Below are positions 10,633-48,103 of a stretch of DNA of 48,103 bases, in pieces. Every line of letters starts with the position of its first letter. Position 1 is the stretch's first letter. A model generated the notes under the pieces. It was not told the DNA's origin and did not search any database. It worked only from the letters and a program-made list of their open reading frames with translations. Source of the DNA: Streptomyces sp. SID3343 (GTDB lineage Bacteria > Actinomycetota > Actinomycetes > Streptomycetales > Streptomycetaceae); the NCBI RefSeq assembly GCF_009865215.1, contig NZ_WWJX01000771.1, positions 1 to 48,103 on the forward strand, written 5' to 3'. The position numbers and the translations under genes were made by a program.

Positions 10633-10712
10633 CGGTCCGACTCCCCACACGACCGAGCGACAACGGCTGTTGCACCGGGCGGATTCTCGTACGGGCGGGC
10701 CGCCATCTGCCG

Positions 10713-11720: not shown

Positions 11721-11758
11721 ATGTGGGTCGCGCGATGCGTGCAACCAGCCGTGAAGCC

Positions 11759-11929
11759 GGTGGCCTTCGAGCGTCGGTAGCCGTGCGGCGGCAGTTCCCG
11801 GCCGGTGACCGCCTCCACCCGTCGGCGTTCCGCCCCGGCGAAGGACCGCGAGGCCGCCAGGGCCCCCACCAGGACCGGCACGATCGGAAGCGTCACCACA
11901 CCGACCGAGTACCCGACCACCGCGGCCAC
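11759..11929 (-). pseudogene. sensor/membrane-domain fragment
   Basis: A minus-strand frame reads VGYSVGVVTLPIVPVLVGAL, then AASRSFAGAERRRVEAVTGR and ELPPHGYRR. This resembles the end of the membrane-spanning sensor domain found at the N-terminus of some actinobacterial histidine kinases (pattern ASRxFAxxERxRVxAVTGRPLPPxxYR). No kinase core follows, because the IS982-like fragment begins immediately. The 12-kb side is degraded as well. Confidence 0.45.
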
Positions 11930-27662: not shown

Positions 27663-27940
27663 GCCGCACCAAGACTCCGGGCCGTGATCGCCGAGCGCGG
27701 GAGCGGCCCGCTTTGGTCGCTTCGGAAGGTGTCTTGTGCGATGAACCGGTCCCGTCGCTTCACGGGCTTCGCCGCCTGGCGGCCGTCGTTCTCGTCGTGG
27801 CCGGCGACCGACGACGAGGACCGGATGCTCGCCCGCACCGACGCGCCGCAAACCGCCGCCGGCCGACCGAGCTGTCAACTCCCCACCGACGACCCGTTGA
27901 TCGTGACCGTCCCGAGGAGCCCGACACGAACCCCGACGCC

Positions 27941-28062
27941 ACCGTCGTGATCGCCGGCGCCGGCCAGGGCGGATTCCAGGTCGCCGCGTCGCTACGTGAA
28001 CGCGGACACGCCGGCCTCGTCGTCCTCGTCGGCGACGAACCGGGCCTGCCCTACAGCTCGAT
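27941..28062 (+). pseudogene. FAD-dependent ferredoxin reductase, N-terminal fragment
   Basis: The plus strand reads TVVIAGAGQGGFQVAASLRE, RGHAGLVVLVGDEPGLPYS and then loses homology. This is the FAD-binding beta-alpha-beta start of the ferredoxin reductases that serve P450s and dioxygenases. The remaining roughly 360 residues are missing. It lies tail to tail with the last ABC gene of the metallophore operon, marking a deletion junction at the cluster border. Confidence 0.68.
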
Positions 28063-28139
28063 CCGCGTCTGGGGGGCAGCAGCCCGGCGTCCTCGGCCGT
28101 GGTCGCCAGGGTGCCACCGCCCGGGCAGCCGCGGAGGCC

Positions 28140-29936
28140 TCACTCGACACCGTGATCGTGGGGATGGTGACGACACCCCGCCGAGCCCGGTGTGGATGCG
28201 GCCGAACCCGCCAGACGCCAACCCCCGGCGCGTTCTCGGTCGCGCCGGAACGTCGCGTACAGGCCGTCACGGCCGATCAGTTCCTCATGTGTGCCGTGTT
28301 CGTCGATCCGCCCCTCGGCGAGGACGAGGATCCGGTCGGCGGCCGAGACGGTCGCCAGTCGGTGCGCGATGACCAGTAGCGTCCTGTCCTGGGCGAGCGT
28401 GTGCATCGTGCGCGTCAGAGCGGCCTCGGTGGAGGCGTCCAGCGCCGCGGTCGCCTCGTCGAACACGACGATCGGCGTGTTCTTGAGCAGTGTCCGCGTG
28501 ATGGCCACGCGTTGTCGCTGTCCGCCGGACAAGGTCGCTCCCCGCTCGCCCACGCGGGTGCGCCAACCGTGTGGCAGTTCGGCCACGACGTCGTCGAGTC
28601 CCGCCAGGTTCGCCGCGCGCAGCAGCCGTTCGTGGCTCGCGTCCGGGTCGCCGACCCGGACGTTGTCCTCCAGCGTCCCTTCGAACAGGTAGGTGTCCTG
28701 GAAGACGGTGGACACGTGGTCGGACAACGTCCGCTCGTCCAGGTCGCGCACGTCGACGCCGCCGATGCGCACCTCGCCCGCGTCCACGTCCCAGAACCGG
28801 GCGAGCAGTCGGGCGATCGTCGTCTTGCCCGCCCCCGAGGGCCCGACCAGCGCGGTCATCCCCCGTTGCGGCAACCGGAAGGACACGTCCACCAGCACGG
28901 GCCGTGGGCCGTAGCCGAAGCGCACCCCGCGAAACTCGACCCCGGCGTGTTTCGGTGTCAGCGGCGCGCGAGGGAGCGGCAGCGGCTCGGCGTCCAGCAC
29001 GGCGGTGATCCGGGCGAGGCTGTTGGCCGACAGGCGCATGCTCGCGCCCAGATCGGCCGCCGCGGACACGCTCTCGGCAAGCCGAGCGGTGAGGACCAGG
29101 AGCGCGAGCAGTGTGGGCGCGCCCATCGCTTCGCCCAGCACCGCATCGATGCCGACGATCAGTACCGCGGCGAAGGTCAGTCGGACCGCGAACGCGAAGG
29201 AGACCAGCCCCGGTACGCCCCGGGTGATCATCGAACGGTCGGCGGCGGCCTCGCGTACCAGCGCCGCGTCCAACGCCGAGTGCCCGTCCACGGTGCGACC
29301 GAACGCACGCAGGACGGGCTGGTTCTGCGCGTACTCCACGATGCGCGCCGCCGCGTCGTCGATGGCCCGATCCCGCCCCAGATCAAGGCGTCGCACGATG
29401 GCGCCACTGGCCAGGTACGCGGCGACGAGGACGGGTGTCGCCAGGGTGAGCGTCAAGGCGACGCGCGGGTCGAAGATCCAGCAGGCGCCGAGGATGGTCA
29501 GCGGGGTGACCACGGCATTGGTCAGTGGCCGCAACAGGTGCGCCGGCACGTTCATCACCTGGACGACGCTTTGACTGGCCAACCGGCCGAGTTCGGCGGA
29601 GCGGGCCCGGGTGAACCAACCCAGGGGGAGCGTCACGACGTGGTCGGCGATCCGATGGTGTAGCGCTCGGGACAGCCGGGCGCCGGTGGTGAAGCCGCCG
29701 GCGATACTCGCCGCCTGGACGATCGCGTAGCCCCCGGCGCACAGGCACAGCCAACCCAGGTAGGGCACGGCCGCGTCCGGGTCCTCGCCGAGCAGGCGGG
29801 TGAGCACCGGGACGGTGAGGCCGAACGCGAGTCCCTGCAGGACCGCGGCGACGACCATCGTGGCGATCAGCCGCCGCAGGGCACGCGCGTGCTCGGCTCC
29901 CAGGGCCCGAAACAGGTGGCGCAGCATGGTGGTCAC
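28140..29936 (-). CDS. ABC transporter, exporter fold (YbtP/YbtQ-like), second subunit
   Basis: 598 residues: an N-terminal six-helix membrane domain (about 1-310) fused to a nucleotide-binding domain (about 340-575). Visible motifs are Walker A GPSGAGKT, signature LSGGQRQRVAITRTLL, Walker B IVVFDEATAALD and the switch His in IAHRLATV. It starts at GTG 29936, overlapping the partner gene by GTGA; ATG 29927 is an alternative start. With the preceding gene it forms a probable heterodimer of the YbtPQ/IrtAB type, exporter-fold proteins known to import siderophores, although export cannot be excluded. The last about 20 residues are unusual and end in CRHHPHDHGVE. This could bind metal, or may simply reflect the deletion junction downstream. 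Confidence 0.92.
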   Translation of the reverse strand: MTTMLRHLFRALGAEHARALRRLIATMVVAAVLQGLAFGLTVPVLTRLLGEDPDAAVPYLGWLCLCAGGYAIVQAASIAGGFTTGARLSRALHHRIADHVVTLPLGWFTRARSAELGRLASQSVVQVMNVPAHLLRPLTNAVVTPLTILGACWIFDPRVALTLTLATPVLVAAYLASGAIVRRLDLGRDRAIDDAAARIVEYAQNQPVLRAFGRTVDGHSALDAALVREAAADRSMITRGVPGLVSFAFAVRLTFAAVLIVGIDAVLGEAMGAPTLLALLVLTARLAESVSAAADLGASMRLSANSLARITAVLDAEPLPLPRAPLTPKHAGVEFRGVRFGYGPRPVLVDVSFRLPQRGMTALVGPSGAGKTTIARLLARFWDVDAGEVRIGGVDVRDLDERTLSDHVSTVFQDTYLFEGTLEDNVRVGDPDASHERLLRAANLAGLDDVVAELPHGWRTRVGERGATLSGGQRQRVAITRTLLKNTPIVVFDEATAALDASTEAALTRTMHTLAQDRTLLVIAHRLATVSAADRILVLAEGRIDEHGTHEELIGRDGLYATFRRDRERAGGWRLAGSAASTPGSAGCRHHPHDHGVE

Positions 29937-31702
29937 ACGTTCTCCGGATCGGCGGTGGCGCGCACGCGCGCGCGACGGTGCCACAGCCGGGCGTAGGGCC
30001 CGTCGGCGGCGAGGAGTTGATCGTGGCGGCCTTGTTCGACCACGCGTCCGGTGTCGAGGACGACGATGTTGTCCGCTTCGCGCACGGTTTCCAGGCGATG
30101 CGCGATCACCAACACGGTGCGTCCGGTCGCCAGTTCGCTCAAGGCGTCCTGGATGTGCGCCTCGGCGGTGGGGTCGGCGAAGGCGGTCGCCTCGTCCAGG
30201 ACGAGGATCGGGGCGTCGGTGAGCAGGGCTCGGGCGATCGAGACGCGTTGGGCCTCGCCGCCCGAGAACTGCGCGTCCTGGCCCACCACCGAGTCGTATC
30301 CGCGCGGGAGTTCGAGCACCCGCTCGTGGATGCGGGCCGCCGTGGCGGCGCGGATCACCTGTTCGTGGGTGGCCTCGGGCCGGCCCAGTCGGATGTTGTC
30401 GGCGACGCTGTCCGCAAGGAGCCGGACGTCCTGGAAGACGAAGCCGACGGTGCGGTAGAGGTCGCCGGCCGCGATGTCGCGGACGTCCACGCCACCGATG
30501 TCGACGGTTCCGGCGTTCGCGTCGTGGAATCTGGGCAGCAGTGCGGCAAGGGTGGACTTCCCGGAGCCGGAGGGGCCCACGAGTGCGGTGACCGTTCCCG
30601 GGGCGAGGTCGAGGTCGATGTCGTGGAGTACGTCGTGCTCGCCGTCGTAGGAGACCCGTACGCCGCGCAGTCTCACGTGCCGGCCGACCGGTGTACGCGG
30701 CGACTCGGGCTGGGAGAGGGGTGGTTCGTCCAGCAGGTCGGTGATGCGGGCGGCGGCGGCGCGTCCGCTTTGGATCTGTTGCAGCCGCGTGCCCACCGCG
30801 CCCACGGGAGCCGCGAGGGTGGGCGCCAACAACGTGAACGGGATCAACGTCGCCGGTGCGATCACGTCCTGGGTGACCAGGATCGCGCCGACACCCAAAA
30901 CCAGGGTGAGGACGACGACGGGCGCGACCACGAGGAACGCCGCGGTGCTGACCACCAGCGTGCGGCGTGACCAGGCGGCGAAGAACGCCGCGAAGTCGTC
31001 GGCCGCGCGAGTGAATCGTCCATGGGGGGTGCGCTCGCGGCCGAAGGCCTTCACCACGGGGATGCCGTCGGCGAACTCGACGGCGGCGGAGGTGATCCGG
31101 GTCTGCGCGCGGTGGTATTCGACCATCTGCTCACCGGCCCCGGCCATGGCACGTCGGAACAACAGCATTCCCGCCACCGCCGGTAGGACGGCGACCAGGG
31201 CGAGCCTCCAGTCGACGGTGAGCAGGTATGCCAGCGCCGCGGTCGGCGCCACCAGCACGGTGGTGACGTCGAGCAGGGTGTGGGCGACCAGATGGTGCAG
31301 CGCGTGCACGTCGTCGTGGGTGGCGGCGGTGATCCGCCCGGTGCCGCGGGAGGTGAACCAGCCGAGCGGCAACCGGCCCACGTGCTCGGCGAGTTCGCGA
31401 CGCAGCCGCAGTTGCAGCGCGTTGTCGGCGTAGTGGCTCAGTGTCGCGGCCGCGTAAGCGAGCACGAGCGCGAGCAGGGCCGCGCCGGCCGCGGTCGACA
31501 CGAGCGGCCACACGCGGGCACCGGACGGAGCCGGATCGTCGAGCAGTCGGCGGGCGAGTTCGCCCACGGCGATGAACGGGACGATCCCGACCAGCGCGGC
31601 GAGTGCCTGGAGGCCCACCGCGAGGGTGAGTCGGCCGTGTCCGCCCTCGGTCACCCGGCGCAGCGGACCGGGCTTCTTCGGTGCGTGTCCGGGAGGTGTC
31701 AT
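29933..31702 (-). CDS. ABC transporter, exporter fold (YbtP/YbtQ-like), first subunit
   Basis: 589 residues. Membrane domain about 20-320, with segments such as LAALVGIVPFIAVGELA and VVLTLVLGVGAILV, and an ATPase domain about 345-570. Walker A is GPSGSGKS, the signature is FSGGEAQRVSIARALL (an F and E variant of LSGGQ), Walker B is ILVLDEATAF followed by ADPTAE, and the switch region is IAHRLETV. The ATAFADPxxE D-loop recalls siderophore transporters of the YbtP/IrtA group. ATG 31702 overlaps the methyltransferase stop (ATGA), and the stop overlaps the next ABC gene. It is expected in the cytoplasmic membrane as one half of a heterodimer moving the metallophore. Confidence 0.92.
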   Translation of the reverse strand: MTPPGHAPKKPGPLRRVTEGGHGRLTLAVGLQALAALVGIVPFIAVGELARRLLDDPAPSGARVWPLVSTAAGAALLALVLAYAAATLSHYADNALQLRLRRELAEHVGRLPLGWFTSRGTGRITAATHDDVHALHHLVAHTLLDVTTVLVAPTAALAYLLTVDWRLALVAVLPAVAGMLLFRRAMAGAGEQMVEYHRAQTRITSAAVEFADGIPVVKAFGRERTPHGRFTRAADDFAAFFAAWSRRTLVVSTAAFLVVAPVVVLTLVLGVGAILVTQDVIAPATLIPFTLLAPTLAAPVGAVGTRLQQIQSGRAAAARITDLLDEPPLSQPESPRTPVGRHVRLRGVRVSYDGEHDVLHDIDLDLAPGTVTALVGPSGSGKSTLAALLPRFHDANAGTVDIGGVDVRDIAAGDLYRTVGFVFQDVRLLADSVADNIRLGRPEATHEQVIRAATAARIHERVLELPRGYDSVVGQDAQFSGGEAQRVSIARALLTDAPILVLDEATAFADPTAEAHIQDALSELATGRTVLVIAHRLETVREADNIVVLDTGRVVEQGRHDQLLAADGPYARLWHRRARVRATADPENV

Positions 31703-32430
31703 GCGACGAGGACTCCTATGTGGGGGACGACGTGGGAGCCGACGCGGGTGATCCGGCGGACGGTCATGCCGGACTCGGCCGCGAGTCGGTCGAGGTCGTA
31801 GGCGTGCCAGTCGTAGGTGTCGGTCACCTCGCGCACCAGGCGTCCGTCGTCGTCGAGGACCTTCCAGGTGGTACTGAAGCGGGTACGGTCGGCGGCGACG
31901 GGTTCCGCGGCGATCCACCATTCGTACACCTGGCGGCCGATGCGCTCGCTCAGCGACAGCGTGGGTGGCATCGGCCGGGGGGCGGCGGTGCCCATCAGCT
32001 CGACCGCGACCAGCCCTCCGGGGGCCAGGTGAGCGGCCAACCGGCGCCACAGTGCGATACGTTCGCGCCGATCCAGGTGGCCGGCGACGCCGAAGATCAC
32101 GGCGGCGCCGATCTTCTCGGGCAACGCCATGTCCTGGGCGGTGCCGTCGGTGATGCTCACTCGGCGTCGCAGGTCCGGGTCTCGGGCGACACGGGAGGCG
32201 AGTACGGCGCGCATGGTCGCGGAGGGTTCCGCGGCGACGATCCGAGCGTGCGGCAGGGCCGCGGCGATGACCTGTGTGACGCGTCCGGTGCCGGCGCCGA
32301 TCTCCACGACCGGGCCCGCGGTCGCGTCGACGTCGGCCAGGACGGCGCTCAGCGCGGGTCCGCTGCTCGTGACGTGGCGGGCCGCGACGAGGTCGTAGAA
32401 CTCCGCGGAGGTCGAGTAGTAGTCGATCAT
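31699..32430 (-). CDS. SAM-dependent methyltransferase, paralogue of the fused one
   Basis: 243 residues. SAM-binding motif I is VVEIGAGTGRVTQVIAAALP, followed by IVAAEP (acidic ribose contact) and the strand GGLVAVELMG. The start DYYSTSAEFYDLVAARH and the block DPDLRRRVSITDG are shared closely with the C-terminal methyltransferase of the reductase fusion gene in this operon (SASAEFFDLVAAPH, DEDLRRRVTVTDG), so the two arose by duplication. It probably O-, N- or C-methylates the metallophore or its precursor. It starts at ATG 32430 with a GAGGA site, the only gene of the operon not overlapping its upstream neighbour (28-bp gap). Confidence 0.88.
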   Translation of the reverse strand: MIDYYSTSAEFYDLVAARHVTSSGPALSAVLADVDATAGPVVEIGAGTGRVTQVIAAALPHARIVAAEPSATMRAVLASRVARDPDLRRRVSITDGTAQDMALPEKIGAAVIFGVAGHLDRRERIALWRRLAAHLAPGGLVAVELMGTAAPRPMPPTLSLSERIGRQVYEWWIAAEPVAADRTRFSTTWKVLDDDGRLVREVTDTYDWHAYDLDRLAAESGMTVRRITRVGSHVVPHIGVLVA

Positions 32431-32458
32431 CGGATTGGGTTCCTCGGGGGGATGGGTG

Positions 32459-33262
32459 TCACGGGGTGCTCGGCCACGGGGAGTTCACCGCGGTCAGGCT
32501 CGGGTCGAGCCGGCCGACCAGGGTGGTGACCACGTCGTGCCGCCGTGGGGTGAGGTAGAAGTGGCCGCCGGGGAAGACGTGGACACGGGTGTCGGCCGTG
32601 GTGAGCGCGGCCCACGGTCGGGCCTGTTCGGGGGCGAATTCGGGGTCCGCGTCGCCGGTGAACACCTCGATGGGGCAGCTCAGCGCGGCCCGGGGCCGAG
32701 GCCGATAGGTCTCCACGAGGCGGTAGTCGTTGCGGACGTAGGACAGCACCGCGCGGCGTAGGTCCGGGTCGGCGAGCACGTCGCGGTGGGTGCCGCCCAG
32801 GCGTTCGAGCTCGGCGCACATGCCCGCGTCGTCGCGCAGGTGGACGGTGCCCGTGCGGGCCCGCACCGGCGCCTCGCGGCCGGACACGCACAGCCGCAGC
32901 GGTTCGCCCAGGCCGCGACGCCGCAGTTCGTGGGCGAGTTCCCAGGCCACGGCCGAGCCCATGCTGTGTCCGAACAGGGCGTAGGGTCGCTCGCTCAGCG
33001 CGGTGACGGCGTCGGCGATGTGCCGGACGAGGTCGTCCATGGTGTCGACGAGGGGGTCGGTGAACCGGTCTTCGCGTCCGGGGTATTGGACGGCGACCAG
33101 TTCCACGGCGCGCGGCATGATCGCGTCCCACGATCGGTAGCCGCCCGCGCCGCCCCCGGCGTGCGGCAGGCACACCAGGCGCAGTCGGGCCGCGGGTCGT
33201 GGGGTCCAGCATCGCAGCCAGCGGGCGGGGTCGACGGTCGAGGGTGACGTCGGCGGCGTCAC
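32459..33262 (-). CDS. type II thioesterase
   Basis: 267 residues, alpha/beta-hydrolase of the GrsT/PchC/YbtT class. The N-terminal region LRLVCLPHAGGGAGGYRSWD forms the oxyanion side; the nucleophile elbow is GHSMG in YALFGHSMGSAVAWELA; the acid lies in IEVFTGDADPE; the catalytic His is in FPGGHFYLTP. Such enzymes remove wrong or stalled acyl groups from carrier proteins, here presumably those of the two NRPSs. The start is GTG 33262, overlapping the P450 stop (GTGA); a longer reading upstream lies inside the P450 gene and is Arg/Pro-rich. Confidence 0.92.
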   Translation of the reverse strand: MTPPTSPSTVDPARWLRCWTPRPAARLRLVCLPHAGGGAGGYRSWDAIMPRAVELVAVQYPGREDRFTDPLVDTMDDLVRHIADAVTALSERPYALFGHSMGSAVAWELAHELRRRGLGEPLRLCVSGREAPVRARTGTVHLRDDAGMCAELERLGGTHRDVLADPDLRRAVLSYVRNDYRLVETYRPRPRAALSCPIEVFTGDADPEFAPEQARPWAALTTADTRVHVFPGGHFYLTPRRHDVVTTLVGRLDPSLTAVNSPWPSTP

Positions 33263-34473
33263 CAGGACACCGGAAGCGAGGTGACGCCGAAGGTGGCGGA
33301 TTCCTGCTTGAACGTCAGGTCTTCGAAGGGAACGGCCAGGCGCAGGGTGGGCACGCGGCGGATCAACGTCTCCAGGGCGATCTCCAGTTCCAGGCGGGCC
33401 AGGTGTTGGCCGACGCACTGGTGGATGCCGTAGCCGAAGGCGACGTGGTGGCGGTTTCCCCGGTGGAAGTCCACGGTCGCGGGGTCGGGGAAGACGTCGG
33501 GGTCGTGGTCGGCCGCGCCCAGGAGCGCGATGACGCCGTCTCCCGCCGGGATGACGGTGCCGGCGATGTCGATGTCCTCGCCCGCCACGCGCAGTGGGAT
33601 GGAGTCGGCGATGGAGAGCACCCGCAGGAGCTCGTCCACCGCTGCCGGGATCAGTTCGGGTTGCGTGCGCAGTTCCGCCATGCGGTCCGGTTCACGCAGC
33701 AGCAGCAGCAGGGTGCTCAGGGAGATCATGTTGGTGGTGGTCTCGCGTCCGGCGATGACGGTGATGCCGATCGTGGACAGCAGTTCGCGGTGGGTGACGT
33801 TGCCGGTGCGCAGGTGGTCGACGACCAGTTTCGACAGCAGGTCGTCGCCGGGTTCGCGTTCGCGCAGCGCGATGAGTTCGCCCAGGAGTTGGAAGAGGGC
33901 GCCCAGAGCCGCGGAGACCTCGGCGGCCGTGCTGGCCCGGCCACCCGAGATGCGGGTGATGTCGTGGAAGAACTCCAGGTCGTCCTTGGGCAGGCCGATG
34001 AGTTCGCAGATGGTGGAGGTGGAGACGGCGTTGGCGTAGGCGGGCACCAGGTCGACGCCGGATCCGACGCCGGGGCCGGCGTCGAGCATGCGATCCAGGA
34101 CGCCGTCGGTGATCTCCTGCACGGCGGGGCGCATCGCGCGCACTCGCTTGACGGTCAGCTCCGGCAGCAGCATGCGCCGGTACCTGGTGTGCTCGGGCGG
34201 GTCGGTGCGGATGAAGGGGCGGGACTTGGCCCCGGCTTCCTGCTCACCCGCGCCCATCGCGGGGAAGTTGGGGTGTCGGATGTCGGCGCTGATGTTCGGG
34301 CTCGCCAGGACCGCGCGCACGTCGGCGTATCGGGTCAGGATCCACGCGGTCTTGCCGGTGGGCAGGACGACGCGAGCGGCGGGTTGTTCCTCGCGCAGCC
34401 CGGCGTACTCGTCGGGAACGGCGAACGGGCAGGTGCGGGGTATCGGGAAGGCGAAGGCGGGTGGGGTGCTCAC
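33259..34473 (-). CDS. cytochrome P450
   Basis: 404 residues, typical bacterial class I length. I-helix oxygen motif AGRETTT (in ITVIAGRETTTNMIS), K-helix ELLR in AAVDELLRVLS, and the heme-thiolate loop FGYGIHQCVGQHLARLE with the ligand Cys. Substrate-region hints include RPFIRTDPPEHTRYRRMLLP. A P450 in a thiazoline-metallophore operon is a feature of the coelibactin cluster and could oxidise the aryl starter, a thiazoline or a side chain. Starts at GTG 34473 (GTGA overlap) and ends overlapping the thioesterase. A ferredoxin or its reductase is not encoded in the visible operon. Confidence 0.93.
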   Translation of the reverse strand: MSTPPAFAFPIPRTCPFAVPDEYAGLREEQPAARVVLPTGKTAWILTRYADVRAVLASPNISADIRHPNFPAMGAGEQEAGAKSRPFIRTDPPEHTRYRRMLLPELTVKRVRAMRPAVQEITDGVLDRMLDAGPGVGSGVDLVPAYANAVSTSTICELIGLPKDDLEFFHDITRISGGRASTAAEVSAALGALFQLLGELIALREREPGDDLLSKLVVDHLRTGNVTHRELLSTIGITVIAGRETTTNMISLSTLLLLLREPDRMAELRTQPELIPAAVDELLRVLSIADSIPLRVAGEDIDIAGTVIPAGDGVIALLGAADHDPDVFPDPATVDFHRGNRHHVAFGYGIHQCVGQHLARLELEIALETLIRRVPTLRLAVPFEDLTFKQESATFGVTSLPVSW

Positions 34474-40600: not shown

Positions 40601-43149
40601 GGGTCTACGTCGGCGATCGGGTGGAAGATCGACCAGATCGCCCCTTCGGTCGCGCCGCCCAGCGCGACGACTTCGAGGCCGGGCACCGCCGTGCGGGCGT
40701 CGTCGGGCAGGGTGACCGGTATCCAGTCGCCGGACAGCAGGGCCAGCCGCAGCGATCGAAGAGCGGTGGTGTCCGAGCCGAGCCAGTCGAGCAGCATCCG
40801 CAGTTGGCCGGGCACCGAGTTCCACACGCTCACGCCCGCGTCGGCGACGAGTTCGGCCCAGTGCGAGGGGTCGCCTCGGCGTTGTGGGCCGGGCAGGACG
40901 AGCGTGCCGCCGACCGCCAACGAGCCGAAGATGTCGTATACCGACAGATCGAATCCCAGCCCGGCGATACCCAGCACCCGGTCGTCCGCGGTGACGCGGA
41001 AGCGGCGGTTGATGTCGCCGACGGTGTTGAGCGCGGCGCGGTGGCTGATCATCACGCCCTTGGGTGTCCCGGTCGAGCCGGACGTGTAGACGACATAGGC
41101 CAGATCCTCGGGGTCGGCGCGCTCGGCCTCGACCGGTTCGGCCGCCGCGTTCGTCGTCGTGTCGGCCGCGGGGCCGACGGGAAGGTCGAGACGGATCGCG
41201 GTGACGCCGTCGGGCAGTGGGGCGGTCTCGATCAGGTCGGTGCGGGTGAGCGCCAGGCGGACGCCGGCGTCGCGCAGGATCGTGTCGCGGCGCAGGCTCG
41301 GCTGGGCGAGGTCGATCGGCAGGTAGGCGGCGCCGGCCAGGAGCGTGCCCAAGACCGCGACGATCTGTTCCCAGCCCTTGTCCAGCAGGATCGCCACGGG
41401 TGCGTTCGGGGTGGCCTTCCGGGCGACGAGTCGAGCGGCCACCTCTCGTGCGCCGTCGAGCAGTTCGCGATAGGTCAGGTCGCGATCGACGGCCCGTACG
41501 GCGACGGCGTGCGGTTTCACGGCGGCCTGCGTCAGAAACGCGTCGTGCAGCAACTCCTTGGAAACCGGGCCCGCCGTGTCGTTGACCGCGACTCGACGCT
41601 CGGTTTGGACCCGTGGGAGTTCGACCTCCGCGGCCCTCTCCCACGCCTGCCCGTCGGTGCCCAGGCGGCGCACGAGCGCCGCGAACGCCGCGAAGGCGGC
41701 GTCGGCGAGCCCTTCGGGCAGCACGCCCTCGCGTACGTCCCACGACAGGGCCAGGCCGTCGCCGCGTTCCATCACCTGGCAGTCGATCCACACCTGTGGG
41801 GTCTGGGTGCGCGCGTACCCGACGTCGGGGGTCGGCTCGCCGCCGAGGGCGCTGGTGAACACCACCGGCATCAGGGTGCGCGATCCCGCGCGGCGGGAGA
41901 TCTCGGCGAGTACCTCGCCGCCGCCGAATCGCGGATGCGCCAAGTCGTCGAGGAGGCGTTCGGCGATCGCGCGGGCGTGCTCGGTGAACGTGCGCCCTGC
42001 GGTGAGGTCGACGGCCAGGAGCTCCACGGAGGTGAACTCACCGACGACGGAGCCGAGTTCGATGTGCAACGGCGGTCGGTCGACGACAGGGAGATTGAGC
42101 GTGAAACGCGGGTTGCGGCTCCAGCGCCCGACGGTCTCGGCGAACGCGGTGAGCAGCGTCCCGGAGGGCGTCAGGCCGTGACTGCCGGCGTGCGTGCGCA
42201 GTGCGGCCCAGTCGGCCGCGGAAACGATGGTCTCCAAGCGACGAAAACTCGGCGCGTCGACGGCCCCTCGCGATTCGCTCCCGGCTTGTGCCCCGGATTC
42301 GGCTTGGCCCTTTGCCCAGGTCTCGGCCATGGGCAGTTCGGGGGCAGGCGGCAGGTCGTCCAGCCGGTCGAGCCAGTACGCACGGTCGCGGGCGTAGGCG
42401 GGAGTCTCGGTTCGTGCCCGGCGGGCCAGGACGTAGTCCCGGAAGGTGACTTCGGGAGCCGGGGGCAAGGTGCCGGGTGCGGTGTACTCGGTATGGAATT
42501 CGGCCAGCAGGGCGCGCAGGCTCGCGTGGTCGATGGTCATCAGGTCGACGGACAGATGCAGCACGGCGCCGGTGTCGGTGCGCGTCACGTGCGCGGTGTG
42601 GGGCAGGCCCGGGCGAGCGCGGCCGTCGCGCCGGGACAGGGCGGCGCGGGTGCGTTCGATCGCGGCGGCGCCGGCTTCGGGCCCGTGTCCGCGTACGTCG
42701 TCCATCGGTACGACCGGCTCGGGCACCTCGCGAGGCACCTCCTGGTAGCCGTCCGGGTGGACGACCGCGCGCAGCATGTCGTGCCGCTCGACCAGGGTGC
42801 GCCAGGTCGCGGTGACCCCGGCGGGATCCAGATCGGGGTAGGCGAGTTCGAGGTAGGCGTGGCACGCGACGCCGCCGTACTCGTACACGTCGGCGCGGCC
42901 GACGAGGTAGGCGGCCTGCAGGTCGGTGAGGGGAAACGGCTCGTACCGGGCGGTGGGGTCCGGTGTGATGCGGTCCGGGTCGCCGGCGGGGGACAGGTGG
43001 GTGAGCAGGTCCTCGCGGTGGGCCCGCAGGGTGGCTTTACGGGCGTCGGTCATGGCGCCGGGACTGGCCCGGTAGCGCAGACGGCCGTCGTCCGCCCACA
43101 CGGTGATGCCGGCGTCGGTGTACTCGGCCAGCAGGTCGGTGATGTTCAC
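37618..43149 (-). CDS. NRPS: docking-Cy-A(MT)-PCP-TE, terminal cysteine module
   Basis: 1843 residues. TubC-type N-terminal docking domain, 2-52 (NITDLLAEYTDAGITVWADD). Heterocyclisation domain, about 72-500, with DLMTIDHAS at 202-210 (DxxxxDxxS). Adenylation domain, about 530-1425: YTSGSTGTPKG at 689-699; the pocket residues read DLYNLSLIW, the cysteine code. A methyltransferase is inserted between cores A8 and A10 (about 1120-1375; motif I VMEVAGGVGGTT). Carrier protein, about 1440-1515, with phosphopantetheine Ser1472 (LGGDS). Thioesterase, about 1540-1843, whose elbow is GYCLGG with Cys1622 where Ser is usual. This is the layout of PchF (pyochelin). It should add and cyclise the last Cys, N-methylate it after reduction, and release the product. 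GTG 43149 overlaps the preceding stop (GTGA) and gives the docking start; an upstream reading to 43917 lies out of frame in the first NRPS. Confidence 0.94.
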   Translation of the reverse strand: MNITDLLAEYTDAGITVWADDGRLRYRASPGAMTDARKATLRAHREDLLTHLSPAGDPDRITPDPTARYEPFPLTDLQAAYLVGRADVYEYGGVACHAYLELAYPDLDPAGVTATWRTLVERHDMLRAVVHPDGYQEVPREVPEPVVPMDDVRGHGPEAGAAAIERTRAALSRRDGRARPGLPHTAHVTRTDTGAVLHLSVDLMTIDHASLRALLAEFHTEYTAPGTLPPAPEVTFRDYVLARRARTETPAYARDRAYWLDRLDDLPPAPELPMAETWAKGQAESGAQAGSESRGAVDAPSFRRLETIVSAADWAALRTHAGSHGLTPSGTLLTAFAETVGRWSRNPRFTLNLPVVDRPPLHIELGSVVGEFTSVELLAVDLTAGRTFTEHARAIAERLLDDLAHPRFGGGEVLAEISRRAGSRTLMPVVFTSALGGEPTPDVGYARTQTPQVWIDCQVMERGDGLALSWDVREGVLPEGLADAAFAAFAALVRRLGTDGQAWERAAEVELPRVQTERRVAVNDTAGPVSKELLHDAFLTQAAVKPHAVAVRAVDRDLTYRELLDGAREVAARLVARKATPNAPVAILLDKGWEQIVAVLGTLLAGAAYLPIDLAQPSLRRDTILRDAGVRLALTRTDLIETAPLPDGVTAIRLDLPVGPAADTTTNAAAEPVEAERADPEDLAYVVYTSGSTGTPKGVMISHRAALNTVGDINRRFRVTADDRVLGIAGLGFDLSVYDIFGSLAVGGTLVLPGPQRRGDPSHWAELVADAGVSVWNSVPGQLRMLLDWLGSDTTALRSLRLALLSGDWIPVTLPDDARTAVPGLEVVALGGATEGAIWSIFHPIADVDPRRPSIPYGRPLTNQTFHVLDGHLRPRPDWVVGELYIGGLGVAQGYLGDPQRTAERFVDHPVTGERLYRTGDLGRYLPDGDIEFLGREDAQVKIRGYRIELAEVEAAVHAHPAVGGCAVVVDDHGGDGRRLAAFVEPARRDRPSTPSGGAEAADRAATRAIREASAEIDADRLAAFLGDLDEVALAVMTRTLLGAGLFGGNDAHTFDQVCEGLRATARHRRLVRRWLDALVAERRLRLRANTYSHLLAVTADDLAAAWRRAAAGEREVGWSTELLDTMRTCADRVDTLLDGSSDIRELLFPGASPAAIESAYRDNLAIRHLGHGLTAALRATAAAHVGERRLRVMEVAGGVGGTTTRLIPALAEYGVDYLFTDASPFFLAEARERFTDHPWVRYGLFDIDRDPRGQGHAPNSYDVIVCANALHASADAATAVARLCELLTPGGRLAFVENTRDAHYPLMVSMEFLELTGAPWTDVRADTGQSFLTRDQWLGLLADQGVHDTLVLPAPGDPMTATGQQLFLASVKTDRVRTDGDELARHTANRLPEYMVPAAFHLVDALPHTANGKVDRTRLLSWLPAEATVAPATSAAPADGLESELAELWRELLSVEGIGRDDDFFALGGDSLLVARMVGRLRALVAGAAELEWESVLRHLLLRPTIAGLAAHLRAAGGDRASTPDEGPRTPLVHLHGPPAGEGPVTVLVHAGTGTVMPYRALITEIRRRSPGRGTVLGLEIPGLDRYLDAHPEGLIEALAADYAKALADTGADTFHLIGYCLGGLIATEVARGLSESGADVASLTVISSHSPRFRLDDELLSEYSFAVMMGINPADLGFPADENAVAAAADAVLADSPGVLPDGAIAASTGEHAHVGVRFRALGEVSRPTRVARMCDAVPAAAGTYEPDHMNRLFATFRQSVFAITRYQAEPYAGDITFLRHSGAYPFPGSRDAVTEHWHDLALGDLRILDIQGDHFSCLSVDHAPGVLKVLDDLTDGAVTR

Positions 43150-46100
43150 AGGACCCCGTTCTCGAACTCGAGCTCGGACGCGGCGGTGTCGGCCGGCCCG
43201 GTCGTGACGTGTGCCGCGATGCGAGTGGCCAGGGCGGCCACGGTCGGTGCGGCGAGGAAGTGTCGGGTGGTCAGGGGCACGCCGAAGTGTCGTTCGACGG
43301 CCGCGGTGACCCGGATGGCGGTGAGGCTGTCCCCGCCGAGGCCGAAGAAGTTGGCGTGCCGGTCGGTGACGGCACTGCCCAGGTGCTCGGACCACAGCGC
43401 GGCCACCGCCTGTTCCAGGCCGTCTTCGGGTGGTTCGCCTCCGCCGCGGTGCGGGGACGCGTCGCGGGCCAGGGTGCGCAGGGCGGCGCGGTCCACCTTG
43501 CCGTTGGGGGTCAGGGGCAGCGTGTCGAGCACGATCACGCGGCCGGGGAGGGCGTACGGCGGGACCCGGTCGAGAGTCCAGGCGATCAGGTCGTCGGGGG
43601 ACGCGCCCGACGCACCCTCGACGGTGACGAACGCGACCAGGGAAACGGCCGCGCGGTCGCCGATCGCCACCACGGCGGCGCGGGCGACCCCGGGATGGCC
43701 GAGCAGTGCGCTTTCCACTTCGCCGGGTTCGATCCGGTTGCCCGCGATCTTCACCTGTTCGTCGGCGCGGCCCAGAAACTCCAGAGTCCCGTCGGGCCAG
43801 TAGCGACCCAGGTCGCCGGTGCGGTACCAGCGCTCGCCGTCGCGCGTGACGAACTTCGCGTTGGTGCGCTGCGGGTCGCCCCGGTAGCCGACGGCCAACC
43901 CGGCTCCACCGATCCACAGTTCGCCCGCGACCAGGTCGGGGCAGTCGCGTCCGTGCCGGTCACACACCCGATAGCGCTGGTTGGCCAGCGGGTGGCCGTA
44001 CGGGATCGACGTCCAGTGCGGCGGAACGGCGTGCACGGTCAGCGCGTTGGACCAGATCGCGGCTTCGGTGGCGCCGCCCATGGCGGTGAACCGGCAGCGT
44101 CCGCCGGTGCGTTCGCGCAGCCGAGCGGGCAGGTCCAAGCCGATCCAGTCCCCGGACACCAACGCCGCACGCAGTCCGCTCAGCGCGAAGTCGCCGTCGG
44201 CGGCCCGCTCGTCGGCGTCCACGAGCATGTCCAGGAGTACCGGGACGGTGTTCCACACGGTGACCCGGTGTTCGCGCACGAGCGCACGCCAGCGAGCCGG
44301 TTCGCGTCGGTCCTCCTCGTGTGGCAGGACCAGGGCGCCCCCGGCCGACAGGAGCCCGAAGACATCGAACACGGACAGGTCGAAGTCCAGCGCGGACAGG
44401 GCCAGGACCCGGTCGGCCGCGCCGAGGTGGTGCCGGTCGCGAACGTCGACGACGGTGTTCCACGCGGCGGCGTGGGTCATCTCGACACCCTTGGGTTCAC
44501 CCGTGGAACCGGACGTGAAGATGACGTACGCGAGGGATCCGGGATCCGCCTCCACCGCTTCGGACAGCGGTGCCGCGACCACCGCCTCGCCGAGCGTTCG
44601 CTCGTCGAGCACGATCCGCACGCCCGCCGCGTCCAGGATGCGCCGGCGGCGCAACGCCGGCTGTTCCGTTCCCACCGGGACGTACGCGCCCCCGGCGGCC
44701 AGGATCCCCAGCACGGCGGCGATCTGGTCGGCGCCCTTGGGGACGGTGACCGCGACCGGGTCGCCGCTACCGACCCCCCGGCCGCGCAACAATGCGGCCA
44801 CCCGCAGGGCCCGATCGGCGAGTTCACCGTACGAGGTGCCGGCACCGGTGTGTGCGATCAGCGCCTTCGCCTGTGGCCGGATGCGCGCCTGCTCGAAGAA
44901 GGCGGCGTGCAGCGCACGGGCGGCAACGGGTGTCCCGGTCGCGTTCACCGCCTCTCGGACGGTGCGGGTGGCCGCCGGCAGCAGGTCCACGACGGGTGCC
45001 TGCGGCCCCGATTCGGCGACGTGCTCCAGGAGTCGCCCGTAGGCGTCGAGCATCGCGGCCGGCACTCCGGGGGCGAACGCCTCCTCGACCGCGTCCCAGG
45101 TGACCAGAAGCCCGCCGTTCTCCTCCGTGACCTGATTGTCCAGACAGACCTGGGGCGATTGCGAGATCCCCCACGTACGGGTGGGGAAGGTGTCGGACAG
45201 GTCCATGGACACGCCGTCGCCGACGCCGATCGCGCTGGTGAACACCACCGGGACGGCGCCCTCGCCATCGCCGCGTCGGGCCAGTTCGCGCAGCAGCCAC
45301 GCGGGGGAGGCGTCGCGGTGGTCGAGATCGAGGGCCTGCCGTCGTTGCAGTTCCACGGCCGCGGGCAGCAGGGCAGCGTCGGCGCGTCGGTAGTCGGCGG
45401 GCGCGAGCGCGGTGAAGTCGCCGAGCACTCGGGTGATGTGCGGGTGCGTCTCGCGGCGGTTGAACAGGGTCAGCGTGACGGTGACCGCGTCGATCCCGCT
45501 CCAGGCCGCGAGCACCTCCCCATAGCAGGCCAGCAGCAGGGTGGAGGGGGTGAGTCCGCCGGCGCGGGCGTGTTCCTTGAGCGCCCGCCAACGTTGGGCC
45601 GGCAGCCGGAAGGTGCGCCGGGTGAAGCGCGGCGCGAGCACCTCGGACAGCGGCTTGGCCAACGGCGGACTCGGCGCCGGCGGCAGTTCGGCGATCCGCG
45701 CCCGCCAGTGCGTGTGCGAACGCTCTTGGGCCTGGGGATCGGTGCCGACGTGCCGCAGGTAGTCCCGGAAGGTCACCTCGACGGGGGGCAGGGCGGCGGC
45801 CGGGTCGGCGTAGAGGTGGTCGAGTTCGGTGTACAGGGTCATGATCGACAGGGCGTCGAACACGATGTAGTCGAGACCGACGGACAAGCGGGTGTGCACC
45901 AGGCCGTCGGCGCCGGGGCGGCGTACCGCCCGAACCTCGAACAGCGGCCACCTGCCCGGGTCGAGGACACGGTGGGAGCCTTCGGCGCGCAGCGTGGCCA
46001 AGGCGGACTCGGCGCCCGCGGCGTCGGTGTCGACGACGTCGATGACGAAGTCGGGGACCTCGGCCAGGACCCGCTGGGTGCCGTCCGGGTCGATGACGGC

Positions 46101-48103
46101 GCGCAGCATGTCGTGGCGCCGGATCAGGGTGCGCCAGGCGCGTTCCATCCGCTCGATGTCGACGTCGGTGTCGTCGAACTCGGTGTAGTGCCACGTGCCG
46201 ACCCCGCCGAGAGTGAACTCGGGGGCGCGTCCGTTCAGGTAGGCGGCCTGCACCTCGGTGAGGGGGAACGGGTCGTTGCGGTGCTCCGAATCGGCCGCGA
46301 CGATCGCCCGCGAGGGGGCTCGACCCGGGCTCAGCAGAGCGGCGAATTCGCGCAGCCGGGGAGTGGTGAACACGGCAGCGACGGTTGCTCCGGTGATGCC
46401 GGCGGCCCGCAACCGGCCCAGCATGCGAGTCGCCACGAGCGAATCCCCGCCGAGCTCGAAGAAGCCGTCGTCGCGGGTGACGGCCGCGACGTCCAGGAGT
46501 TCGCCCCAGATCTTGGCGACCGCCGTCTCGATGTCGCCCTCGGGGGAAGCTCCCCCGCCGGACCGGTCGCGAGTCGCTCGGTCGAGGGCGCGTTGTACCG
46601 CGCGCCGGTCGAGTTTGCCGTTGGCGGTCAGCGGCAGGGACTCCCACGCGTGCACGTGCTCGGGGACCATGTACGGCGGGAGGCGTTCGCCGACCCGGGT
46701 GCGCAGCGCGGCGGGGTCGGGCAGGACCCGGCCCGACGCCGAGACGGCTGCGGCCAGACGGCGCGCCGGGCCTTCGACGACGACGGCGACCGCCTGAAGG
46801 ACGGCGGGATGGCTCTCCAACGCCGCCTCGATCTCGCCGAGTTCGATCCGATGGCCGCGAATCTTGACCTGGTGGTCGGCGCGTCCGAGAAACTCCAGGA
46901 CGCCGTCGTCGCGGTAGCGGGCGAGGTCGCCGCTGCGGTACCAGCGCACGCCGTCGTGCTCGACGAAACGCTCGGCGCTGCGCTCGGGATCCCCCCGGTA
47001 GCCCGCGGCCACGCCCGCGCCACCGACCCACAGTTCGCCGGCGACCCAGTCGGGGCAGTCCCGCCCGCGCGCGTCGACGACGCGGGCCCGGGTGCCGGGC
47101 AGCGGTGCGCCGTAGGGAATCGAACGCCACGCGGGATCCACGTCGTGCACCTCGAACACGGTCGAGTGGATGGCCGCCTCCGTCATCCCGCCCAACGCCA
47201 CGAAACGGCAGCCCGGCACCACGGCACGCAGTCGCTCGGGTTGGTCCAGGCCCACCCAGTCGCCGCCCAGCATGACCAGGCGCAGGTCACCGCCGAGGCC
47301 GTCGTCGGCCGCGGCGGTGAGGAGCATGTCCAAGAGCGCGGGCACGCACGAGAGCACGGTGACGCCGTGTCGCCGCACGAGTTCGGCCCAGTGGGCGGCG
47401 TCGCGGCGGTGCGCCTCCGCGACGGTGACCAGCGAACCCCCCACCGAGAGGAACGCGAACATGTCGTACACGGACAGGTCGAAATCGAGGGCGGACATGG
47501 CCAGCGTGCGATCGTGTGCCCCGACGTCGAAGAGGTCGCCGACCACGTCGATCGTGTTGGCCGCCGCGCGGTGCGCGACCTCCACGCCCTTGGGCACGCC
47601 GGTGGATCCGGACGTGAAGATCACGTAGGCGACGTCGTCGGGTGAGCCGTCCACGACCGGCGCCGGCGCGTCCTCGGCGGTTGTCTCGAGGTCGACCACC
47701 ACGGTGTCCGGCCCGGTTGTCACCAGGTGCGTGTGCGCGCGGTCGGTGACCGTCACCCGGACGCCGGCGGTGTTCCGCATCGTCGTCCTGCGCCGGCTGG
47801 GCTGGTCCACACCGATCGGCACGTAAGCGGCGCCGGTGGCCAACACGCCCAGGACCGCGACGACTTGCGCGATGCCCTTGGGGACGGTGATGGCGACGGT
47901 GTCGCCCGGCCGCACCCCGTCGCGGATCAGCCGGCCGGCCAGGCGCCGGGCCCGATCGGCGAGCCGCCCGTAGGTCCAGCTCTCGCCACCGACCCCGTCG
48001 ATCACCGCGACGCGGTCGGGGGTGGCCTCGGCGTGGGCGAAGAAGCGTCCGTGCAGGGTGCGGGGCGTGGCGCCGGCACGGGCGCTCTCGACCGGGCGGC
48101 CCG
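43146..48103 (-). CDS. NRPS: (…)A-PCP-Cy-A-PCP, 5' end beyond window
   Basis: About 1651 residues are visible; the frame stays open to the right edge and begins inside the lead-in of an adenylation domain (TLHGRFFAHAEATPDRVAVI), so a Cy or aryl-carrier region is expected further upstream. First A domain about 10-500: FTSGSTGVPKG, pocket residues approximately DLYSMGLIH. First carrier protein about 520-590, Ser554 in LGGDS. Cy domain about 610-1045 with DYIVFDALS (744-752). Second A domain about 1065-1545: FTSGSTGEPKG, pocket residues DLFNLSMIW, close to the cysteine code. Second carrier about 1560-1635 (LGGDS). The acidic tail ASELEFENGVL probably meets the TubC-type docking domain of the next NRPS. 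It would build a bis-thiazoline chain from Cys-like units. The stop overlaps the next GTG. Confidence 0.93.
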   Translation of the reverse strand, partial: GRPVESARAGATPRTLHGRFFAHAEATPDRVAVIDGVGGESWTYGRLADRARRLAGRLIRDGVRPGDTVAITVPKGIAQVVAVLGVLATGAAYVPIGVDQPSRRRTTMRNTAGVRVTVTDRAHTHLVTTGPDTVVVDLETTAEDAPAPVVDGSPDDVAYVIFTSGSTGVPKGVEVAHRAAANTIDVVGDLFDVGAHDRTLAMSALDFDLSVYDMFAFLSVGGSLVTVAEAHRRDAAHWAELVRRHGVTVLSCVPALLDMLLTAAADDGLGGDLRLVMLGGDWVGLDQPERLRAVVPGCRFVALGGMTEAAIHSTVFEVHDVDPAWRSIPYGAPLPGTRARVVDARGRDCPDWVAGELWVGGAGVAAGYRGDPERSAERFVEHDGVRWYRSGDLARYRDDGVLEFLGRADHQVKIRGHRIELGEIEAALESHPAVLQAVAVVVEGPARRLAAAVSASGRVLPDPAALRTRVGERLPPYMVPEHVHAWESLPLTANGKLDRRAVQRALDRATRDRSGGGASPEGDIETAVAKIWGELLDVAAVTRDDGFFELGGDSLVATRMLGRLRAAGITGATVAAVFTTPRLREFAALLSPGRAPSRAIVAADSEHRNDPFPLTEVQAAYLNGRAPEFTLGGVGTWHYTEFDDTDVDIERMERAWRTLIRRHDMLRAVIDPDGTQRVLAEVPDFVIDVVDTDAAGAESALATLRAEGSHRVLDPGRWPLFEVRAVRRPGADGLVHTRLSVGLDYIVFDALSIMTLYTELDHLYADPAAALPPVEVTFRDYLRHVGTDPQAQERSHTHWRARIAELPPAPSPPLAKPLSEVLAPRFTRRTFRLPAQRWRALKEHARAGGLTPSTLLLACYGEVLAAWSGIDAVTVTLTLFNRRETHPHITRVLGDFTALAPADYRRADAALLPAAVELQRRQALDLDHRDASPAWLLRELARRGDGEGAVPVVFTSAIGVGDGVSMDLSDTFPTRTWGISQSPQVCLDNQVTEENGGLLVTWDAVEEAFAPGVPAAMLDAYGRLLEHVAESGPQAPVVDLLPAATRTVREAVNATGTPVAARALHAAFFEQARIRPQAKALIAHTGAGTSYGELADRALRVAALLRGRGVGSGDPVAVTVPKGADQIAAVLGILAAGGAYVPVGTEQPALRRRRILDAAGVRIVLDERTLGEAVVAAPLSEAVEADPGSLAYVIFTSGSTGEPKGVEMTHAAAWNTVVDVRDRHHLGAADRVLALSALDFDLSVFDVFGLLSAGGALVLPHEEDRREPARWRALVREHRVTVWNTVPVLLDMLVDADERAADGDFALSGLRAALVSGDWIGLDLPARLRERTGGRCRFTAMGGATEAAIWSNALTVHAVPPHWTSIPYGHPLANQRYRVCDRHGRDCPDLVAGELWIGGAGLAVGYRGDPQRTNAKFVTRDGERWYRTGDLGRYWPDGTLEFLGRADEQVKIAGNRIEPGEVESALLGHPGVARAAVVAIGDRAAVSLVAFVTVEGASGASPDDLIAWTLDRVPPYALPGRVIVLDTLPLTPNGKVDRAALRTLARDASPHRGGGEPPEDGLEQAVAALWSEHLGSAVTDRHANFFGLGGDSLTAIRVTAAVERHFGVPLTTRHFLAAPTVAALATRIAAHVTTGPADTAASELEFENGVL

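What the first reader, a model, noticed from the sequence alone, without database searches (positions are those of the whole stretch)
28140..48103. Coelibactin/pyochelin-type thiazoline metallophore operon with nine tightly coupled genes
Seen: two NRPSs with Cy domains (DxxxxDxxS), a PchF-like terminal module, a PchG/Irp3-like reductase, P450, type II thioesterase, methyltransferases and two exporter-fold ABC proteins, all on one strand. Seven of eight junctions are 4-bp GTGA/ATGA overlaps; only the thioesterase/methyltransferase junction has a gap (28 bp). Known: this gene set resembles the Streptomyces coelicolor coelibactin cluster and the yersiniabactin/pyochelin systems, which bind zinc or iron. 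Inference: the product is a multi-thiazoline chelator. The starter-unit genes and promoter lie outside the window, so the exact product is open.
Basis: partly seen in the sequence, partly recalled or inferred. Interest (0 to 1): 0.75.

Follow-up and report, generated by a model that had tools for sequence, protein, structure and literature searches.

The report
Coelibactin-type zinc-chelator operon, swapped starter
This soil-bacterium gene cluster looks like a variant of the long-elusive coelibactin pathway, a predicted zinc-scavenging molecule, that appears to start its product from a pyridine acid made from lysine instead of from salicylic acid.

Summary
In detail: nine same-strand genes (48103 to 28140), 4-bp overlaps at 7 of 8 junctions, one 28-bp gap. 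The order matches the published S. coelicolor coelibactin cluster; the P450 is 69% identical to CYP105N1.

The missing 5' part is on contig C1570 of the same assembly: the ArCP-Cy start of NRPS1, an aryl-AMP ligase, a nickel/peptide-type importer, a ferredoxin and two Zur-like boxes. The perfect box has one other strict match in the 11-Mb assembly, at a znuA-znuC-znuB operon. This supports a zinc metallophore.

Instead a DegT aminotransferase, a luciferase-like monooxygenase and a sarcosine-oxidase-like flavoenzyme sit between importer and ligase. They resemble the 3-hydroxypicolinate (3HPA) gene set, and the ligase pocket shares two residues with ligases linked to that set.

Best reading: a Zur-controlled coelibactin-type pathway primed with 3HPA. 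Product, metal and starter are untested.

The parts
43146..48103 (-). NRPS1, 3' part (A1-PCP-Cy-A2-PCP), cut by the contig end; its 5' part (ArCP-Cy) is on contig C1570 (L037:1-1647, minus strand). Codes A1 DLYSMGLIH, A2 DLFNLSMIW
48090..48103 (.). 14-bp identity with the first 14 bases of contig C1570 (place of the join)
46998..48044 (-). A1 domain core of NRPS1, not the Cys code; Ser or Thr suspected
37618..43149 (-). NRPS2: TubC docking - Cy - A (code DLYNLSLIW) with embedded methyltransferase - PCP - TE
39268..39570 (-). methyltransferase domain embedded in the NRPS2 adenylation domain
38284..38286 (-). TGC codon: Cys in GYCLGG, nucleophile position of the terminal TE (residue 1622)
   Evidence: Cys role shown in sorangibactin, PMC10127202
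36467..37621 (-). saccharopine-dehydrogenase-like oxidoreductase (SrbE/SCO7684 position)
34470..36470 (-). thiazolinyl imide reductase (Irp3/PchG type) fused to a SAM methyltransferase
33259..34473 (-). cytochrome P450, CYP105N1 ortholog (69% identity)
32459..33262 (-). type II thioesterase
31699..32430 (-). stand-alone SAM methyltransferase, 45% identical to the fused one
29933..31702 (-). ABC half-transporter 1, closest solved relative IrtA
28140..29936 (-). ABC half-transporter 2, half-size relatives YbtQ and IrtB

Best explanation
A coelibactin-type nonribosomal metallophore operon under Zur control, primed with 3-hydroxypicolinate (3HPA) instead of salicylate. Proposed route: lysine is turned into 3HPA by the DegT aminotransferase, the FAD oxidase and the flavin monooxygenase; the ligase loads it on the ArCP of NRPS1; module 1 adds Ser or Thr (oxazoline, oxidised to an oxazole by the P450); modules 2 and 3 add Cys; the reductase turns thiazolines into thiazolidines, which the fused, stand-alone or embedded methyltransferases N-methylate; the Cys-TE releases the chain, perhaps onto homocysteine as in sorangibactin; the IrtAB/YbtPQ-like pair and the nickel/peptide-type importer bring the metal complex in. 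Shown here: genes, order, orthology, Zur-like boxes, co-occurrence of the gene set, pocket residues. Inferred: substrates, chemistry, metal, transport direction.
For: Order as SCO7676-7692; P450 best solved relative CYP105N1, 578 bits, next 334. Zur: perfect box in the NRPS1/ligase promoter, the only other strict match in the assembly at a znuA-znuC-znuB operon with a Fur-family gene; a second box (13 of 15) before the ferredoxin-importer genes; perfect box in G020, 12-13 of 15 in five relatives. Starter: salicylate synthase in the cluster of five of five relatives, absent here and in G020, which both have DegT-LLM-DAO between importer and ligase. The set recurs with a DhbE-like ligase in six other fetched contexts of the family, two before an NRPS with a Thr-type first code, one beside KS and ACP genes as in siderochelin. 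Ligases with the set: Phe plus Ser in 8 of 8, and in L149; others: both in 0 of 15. Ring 1: A1 code and Cys-TE match the sorangibactin account.
Against: No chemistry. The ligase's best solved relative is a salicylate-AMP ligase (665 bits; a 2,3-dihydroxybenzoate ligase 642), and its closest tree neighbours come from salicylate-synthase clusters. G000 has a salicylate synthase elsewhere (C81) that could supply salicylate. The DAO passes the N-methyl-tryptophan oxidase cut-off and matches NikD only weakly; the DegT passes no curated cut-off. No FMN reductase was seen among the genes called on C1570. Six of fourteen LLM loci (4 kb each, LLM identity 53-56%) have neither ligase, DAO nor DegT, and Ser alone also occurs in G031 and G034. 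Sorangibactin, the nearest made product, is iron-regulated and salicylate-primed.
Confidence: 0.7

Rival explanations
1. An ordinary salicylate-primed coelibactin-type cluster: salicylate comes in trans from the C81 salicylate synthase, and DegT-LLM-DAO make something unrelated or modify the product.
For: Salicylate synthase on C81 (383 bits, cut-off 325); best solved ligase relative is a salicylate ligase; tree neighbours of the ligase are from salicylate clusters.
Against: C81-type synthases (66 and 65% identical) occur in same-genus genomes G001 and G003, which lack a strong match to the cluster's dehydrogenase-like protein. In G020 the only synthase over the cut-off sits beside FecCD, ABC and Lys/Orn-oxygenase genes of another siderophore-like locus. 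The three genes lie inside the cluster in both genera, and the ligase has the Phe+Ser pair not seen in any of 15 ligases outside the set.
Confidence: 0.23
2. A metallophore for iron (or several metals) rather than zinc, as reported for sorangibactin.
For: Sorangibactin from a coelibactin-like cluster binds Fe(III) and is suppressed by iron (PMC10127202); ABC pair resembles siderophore importers IrtAB/YbtPQ.
Against: Zur-like boxes at both operon promoters, the perfect one shared only with the znuA promoter under the strict pattern; coelibactin genes are Zur-repressed in S. coelicolor (PMC5472717 passages). I did not scan for iron (DtxR/DmdR) boxes.
Confidence: 0.2
3. The window and C1570 are not adjacent (misjoin or contamination), so the starter genes belong elsewhere.
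For: Overlap is only 14 bp; assembly contamination is given as 6.69%.
Against: Of four end pairings only this one overlaps by 8 bases or more; the join gives one NRPS1 frame that aligns with the uninterrupted G020 protein across the join; the G020 chromosome has the same genes in the same order on both sides.
Confidence: 0.04

Closest known systems
Coelibactin cluster, Streptomyces coelicolor SCO7676-7692
   Same: Order ferredoxin, importer, ligase, two NRPSs, SCO7684/7685-position oxidoreductases, CYP105N1, thioesterase position, SCO7688 position, two ABC genes (figure legend of PMC3430247; the thioesterase and ligase functions of SCO7687 and SCO7681 are recalled); P450 69% identical; Zur-like box.
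   Different: No salicylate synthase in the cluster; DegT-LLM-DAO inserted beside the ligase; A1 code DLYSMGLIH (four relatives with in-cluster salicylate synthase have DLWQLGLVH). The S. coelicolor sequences themselves were not available except CYP105N1.
Sorangibactin (Srb) cluster, Sorangiineae MSr11367
   Same: Two NRPSs with terminal HC-A-MT-CP-TE, Cys-TE, SrbE-like protein, P450, Irp3-like reductase, methyltransferases (by the paper, PMC10127202).
   Different: There salicylate starter by SrbB, separate reductase and methyltransferase genes, VOC protein SrbJ, iron response. Sequence not held, so compared by text only.
3-hydroxypicolinate gene sets (siderochelin sidHIJ, viridogrisein sgv, virginiamycin vis)
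   Same: Aminotransferase, FAD enzyme and flavin monooxygenase near an aryl-AMP ligase (PMC11481915, PMC9854754 passages).
   Different: No direct sequence comparison with SidHIJ or Sgv proteins; here the set sits in a zinc-type metallophore cluster and lacks a visible FMN reductase.
Pyochelin and yersiniabactin systems
   Same: Cy domains, terminal Cy-A(MT)-PCP-TE module, Irp3/PchG-type reductase, YbtPQ-like ABC pair.
   Different: First ring from Cys there (recalled); P450, dehydrogenase-like protein, Cys-TE and fused methyltransferase here; Zur-like rather than iron regulation sites.
Saccharopolyspora spinosa coelibactin relative with 6-methylsalicylate-type synthase (PMC4256081, one passage seen)
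   Same: A coelibactin-type cluster that has taken in genes for another building block.
   Different: A polyketide synthase there; a lysine-to-3HPA gene set here.

Membership tests
Coelibactin-type cluster | ArCP-Cy-A-PCP-Cy-A-PCP plus Cy-A(MT)-PCP-TE NRPS pair in the SCO7676-7692 gene order | tested here: met
   NRPS1 spans two contigs
Coelibactin-type cluster | CYP105N1 ortholog | tested here: met
   273 of 396 aligned residues identical; 578 bits against 334 for the next
Coelibactin-type cluster | Zur control | tested here: inconclusive
   Zur-like boxes at both promoters; binding and zinc response not testable
Coelibactin-type cluster | salicylate synthase in the cluster | tested here: not met
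   No match in the fetched stretches of the cluster at E<=1e-12; five of five relatives have it. Filed therefore as a variant, not as coelibactin itself
Coelibactin-type cluster | same product | not testable with these tools
   coelibactin has not been isolated (PMC3430247, PMC10127202)
Sorangibactin/coelibactin Cys-TE | Cys in place of Ser in the terminal TE | tested here: met
   GYCLGG; but 23 of 24 TE matches have Cys, so it marks a wider group
Pyochelin/yersiniabactin siderophores | first module loads Cys | tested here: not met
   A1 DLYSMGLIH against DLYNLSLIW of A3; reading of codes is recalled
3HPA gene set | Lys 2-aminotransferase | tested here: inconclusive
   DegT/DnrJ family, 316 bits; substrate unknown, no curated model passed
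3HPA gene set | FAD-dependent dehydrogenase | tested here: inconclusive
   DAO family; over the N-methyl-L-tryptophan oxidase cut-off, NikD only 70 bits
3HPA gene set | FMN-dependent monooxygenase | tested here: inconclusive
   Bac_luciferase family; closest solved 7bip, 392 bits; no curated model passed
3HPA gene set | NADH:FMN reductase | tested here: inconclusive
   None seen among genes called on C1570, no profile search of the genome; also missing from the siderochelin cluster
3HPA gene set | dedicated aryl-AMP ligase | tested here: inconclusive
   DhbE-type ligase with Phe+Ser pocket pair as in the other ligases linked to the set; substrate not tested

The most novel reading that the evidence does not exclude
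A natural starter-unit switch in a zinc metallophore: a Zur-controlled coelibactin-type assembly line that lost its salicylate synthase and took in a lysine-to-3-hydroxypicolinate module, with matching ligase pocket residues, to make a pyridinol-oxazole-thiazolidine chelator (an 'aza-coelibactin').
Probability: 0.68. Interest if true: 0.72.

Novelty: new variant of a known kind. Interest (0 to 1): 0.6.

Why it matters
Coelibactin has stayed without an isolated product since its cluster was found (PMC3430247, PMC10127202). A variant with a chemically distinct, feedable starter offers a handle: labelled lysine or 3HPA should mark the product, and deleting the monooxygenase should be rescued by 3HPA. 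It would show that zinc chelators evolve by changing the head group. It also gives a two-residue rule, testable in vitro, for telling 3HPA ligases from salicylate ligases. That a thiazoline line can process 3HPA is shown elsewhere: the Bilophila bil line made a 3HPA analogue when fed it (PMC11934131, passages seen).

Tried and rejected
Considered and rejected: (a) DAO as a NikD-like picolinate-forming enzyme by itself: NikD is only a weak match (70 bits against 183 for a sarcosine oxidase), so the 3HPA reading rests on the gene set and its contexts, not on this enzyme's name. (b) The ligase's Phe in place of DhbE His as the mark of a non-salicylate starter: rejected alone, because 7 of 15 ligases outside the gene set have it. 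(c) Ser alone: G031 and G034 have it without the set. (d) The reductase-methyltransferase fusion as a novelty: five other genomes of the 147 searched in the order have it, as do G020 and Micromonospora sp. HNM0581 (L048). (e) The Cys-TE as special to coelibactin: 23 of 24 TE matches have it.

Led nowhere: (a pattern typed at random, no match, useful only for the window's place), plasmid loci L154-L156 (monooxygenase match without DAO or a close ligase), papers on Embleya (listing only). Structure prediction was not used.

Full report
WHAT IS THERE. The window is the whole of contig C1559 of an 11.06-Mb assembly of 1645 contigs (completeness 99.67, contamination 6.69). From 48101 down to 28140 on the minus strand lie nine genes. 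Domains were confirmed with Pfam and NCBIfam. NRPS1 is A-PCP-Cy-A-PCP, cut at its 5' end. NRPS2 is TubC docking-Cy-A with embedded methyltransferase-PCP-TE. Then follow a saccharopine-dehydrogenase-like protein, a thiazolinyl imide reductase fused to a methyltransferase, a P450, a type II thioesterase, a second methyltransferase (45% identical to the fused one) and two ABC half-transporters.

THE MISSING 5' PART. The first 700 residues of NRPS1 of G020 (a colinear cluster in another genus of the same family) found contig C1570, 15,239 bp. Its first 14 bases equal the window's last 14; the other three end pairings have no overlap of 8 bases or more. Joined, NRPS1 is one frame, 2196 aa from the GTG I chose, with ArCP-Cy in front, and it aligns with the uninterrupted G020 protein across the join. 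C1570 also holds an aryl-AMP ligase, DAO, LLM and DegT genes, an importer (fused ATPases just over the curated NikE cut-off, two permeases, SBP_bac_5) and a ferredoxin. PMC3430247 (figure legend and passages seen) describes SCO7676 as a ferredoxin, SCO7677-80 as metal transport proteins, SCO7682/7683 as the NRPSs, SCO7686 as CYP105N1 and SCO7689/7690 as ABC transporters: the same order.

FAMILY. The P450's best solved relative is CYP105N1 (578 bits; next 334), 273 of 396 aligned residues identical. In 147 genomes of the order (150 asked), 11 had a match to the fusion protein at E<=1e-40, the own genome included; five others carry reductase and methyltransferase in one open frame: G055, G059, G092, G102, G121. 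G055, G092 and G121 match from importer to the 3' salicylate synthase. G102 matches from ligase to salicylate synthase, with no importer match in the fetched stretch. G059 has the same biosynthetic order, but its P450 and importer are turned round and no close ABC pair was seen. So the fusion is ordinary for this kind of cluster.

METAL. Published Streptomyces Zur motif: tGaNNatSatNNtCa; coelibactin genes are repressed by zinc-bound Zur (PMC5472717, passages seen). C1570:1735-1749 is TGAAAATGATTTTCA, between NRPS1 and the ligase (0.01 matches expected with up to one mismatch; a second, one-mismatch match lies inside the SBP gene). The strict form TGANAATSATTNTCA occurs at two places in the genome, the other at the start of znuA, followed by ABC ATPase, ABC-3 permease and Fur-family genes. 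The Fur-family protein passes no curated cut-off, so its being Zur is inferred. The looser published motif has six places; the other four were not looked into. The window itself has none. A second box with 13 of 15 matches lies 42 bp before the ferredoxin-importer genes; 60 first-order Markov shuffles of C1570 gave none with 13 or more. G020 has a perfect box in the same promoter, and five relatives have 12 or 13 of 15 there (scans of chosen 300-700-bp stretches). Micromonospora L048 could not be checked; its 5' end was not held. Iron boxes were not scanned. PMC5445379 (passages seen) reports salicylate supplied by a coelibactin pathway, with more of a derived product in zinc-deficient medium. 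ABC1 is closest to IrtA (421 bits); ABC2's half-size relatives are YbtQ (297) and IrtB (296), while full-length ABCB proteins score higher.

CHEMISTRY OF THE LINE. Codes: A1 DLYSMGLIH; A2 DLFNLSMIW; A3 DLYNLSLIW. A1 of G020 and L048 is the same as here; G055, G092, G102 and G121 have DLWQLGLVH and G059 DMYNLGLVH. The Cys, Ser and Thr codes used to read them are recalled. In the eight coelibactin-type clusters seen, A1 is thus not Cys-type; G and H at two positions are shared with the Thr code. In sorangibactin, from a coelibactin-like cluster, the first module takes Ser although software predicted Cys, a P450 turns the oxazoline into an oxazole, loss of the reductase stops the line, and a Cys in the TE is essential (PMC10127202, parts 1-3 of 5 read). 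The window's TE reads GYCLGG. That Cys is not special to coelibactin: of 24 TE matches, the window's own included, 23 have Cys and one (L049) Ser.

THE STARTER. In five of five relatives' clusters a salicylate synthase lies in the cluster: at the 3' end in G055, G092, G102, G121, beside the importer in G059. In G000 and G020 none was found in the cluster. Between importer and ligase both have DegT, LLM and DAO in the same arrangement, 72, 73 and 66% identical. [quoted passage not shown] PMC9854754 (passages seen) describes VisA as a PLP aminotransferase. I searched 150 genomes of the family for the LLM: 18 had a match at E<=1e-80, own and G020 included. Of fourteen 4-kb loci around matches, eight show at least one of ligase, DAO or DegT; the six with LLM identity 53-56% show none. 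Of eight 20-kb stretches then fetched from the closer matches, seven, G020 among them, hold LLM, DegT and a DhbE-like ligase; L143 has DegT, LLM and DAO but no ligase; DAO was not seen in L142 and L147 and is cut by the edge in L144. Contexts: L140 and L142 precede NRPSs whose first A domain reads DFWNVGMVH and DFWSVGMVH, the Thr type expected after 3HPA in streptogramin B (recalled); L141 has two KS genes and an ACP, as described for siderochelin; L144, L145 and L147, and L149, have one PCP-C/Cy-A(MT)-PCP protein, the layout desferrithiocin (3HPA plus alpha-methylcysteine, recalled) would need. Among nine plasmid loci, L149 has the whole set; L148 and L150-L153 have LLM and DAO without DegT or a close ligase in 29 kb (L152 with a DFWNIGMVH module and an ABC-F gene); L154-L156 have the LLM without DAO or a close ligase, two of them with DegT-family matches near 30%.

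LIGASE POCKET. In 23 distinct rows (two duplicates and three solved references left out) the ligases with the gene set have Phe where DhbE has His (AHN) and Ser where DhbE has the second Gly of QVGG: 8 of 8. Of the other 15, none has both; 7 have Phe only and 2 (G031, G034) Ser only. 'Without the set' means not seen in the fetched stretch; L060 has a DegT match and G031/G034 an LLM match at 30%. L149 makes nine with both. The rows are related, so these are not independent events: on the tree the gene-set label needs 3 changes (mean of 500 shuffles 6.7, none as low), and G000+G020 are sister to four relatives' ligases from salicylate-synthase clusters (95/92). That the two residues line the pocket is recalled from DhbE work and from the alignment, not modelled. 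The ligase's best solved relative is a salicylate-AMP ligase (665 bits), which counts against the reading.

OTHER SALICYLATE SYNTHASES. G000 has one on C81. Relatives at 66 and 65% occur in G001 and G003, which lack a strong match to the cluster's dehydrogenase-like protein. G020's sits beside FecCD, ABC and Lys/Orn-oxygenase genes. Neither is tied to this cluster by position.

VERDICT AND LIMITS. Coelibactin-type Zur-controlled metallophore cluster: about 0.93. 3HPA starter given that: about 0.75; together about 0.70. The held library has five papers with both 'coelibactin' and 'picolin'; passages seen in all five do not describe a 3HPA-primed coelibactin. 'Zincophore' with 'picolin' gave two: one of those five, and PMC5120989 seen only as a listing. 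'Desferrithiocin' with 'biosynthetic gene cluster' gave three, seen only as a listing. Subscription papers are not covered, so this is no proof of absence from print.

Noticed in passing
L144, L145, L147, L149 (L149: Streptomyces sp. 769 plasmid pSGZL, 5177-16303 of the locus): Small clusters with the putative 3HPA gene set, a DhbE-like ligase and one PCP-C/Cy-A(Cys-type where read)-MT-PCP protein: candidates for desferrithiocin-type biosynthesis, for which three listed papers (unread) were the only library hits.
   Followed up: partly
L141 (G015 contig C24), about 3778-11923: Siderochelin-like set: ligase, ACP, two KS proteins, DAO, LLM, DegT.
   Followed up: partly
L038/L039 (G000 contig C251): A second DhbE-type ligase (57% to the one on C1570), an isochorismate-synthase-like gene and a large NRPS frame: a probable catecholate siderophore cluster cut by contig ends.
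   Followed up: no
window 27926-28090: An N-terminal piece that reads by eye like an FAD ferredoxin reductase (no Pfam match at 1e-4) just beyond the operon's 3' end, where relatives have the salicylate synthase: maybe a rearrangement scar.
   Followed up: partly
window 3584-5203: TerD/TerF-type protein (tellurium-resistance family); the rest of 1-28000 shows SDRs, an aldo/keto reductase, a zinc-type alcohol dehydrogenase and a TetR regulator among 20 frames scanned.
   Followed up: no
L047 (G000 contig C81) 2-1213 and 2748-4274: Salicylate synthase near what reads by eye as methionine synthase MetE, with a TetR-like gene between; role unknown.
   Followed up: partly
G031 and G034 clusters (L017-L020): Thiazoline-type clusters with two P450 matches and a ligase pocket HNA...IGS, unlike either the salicylate or the 3HPA type; the starter may be something else.
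   Followed up: no
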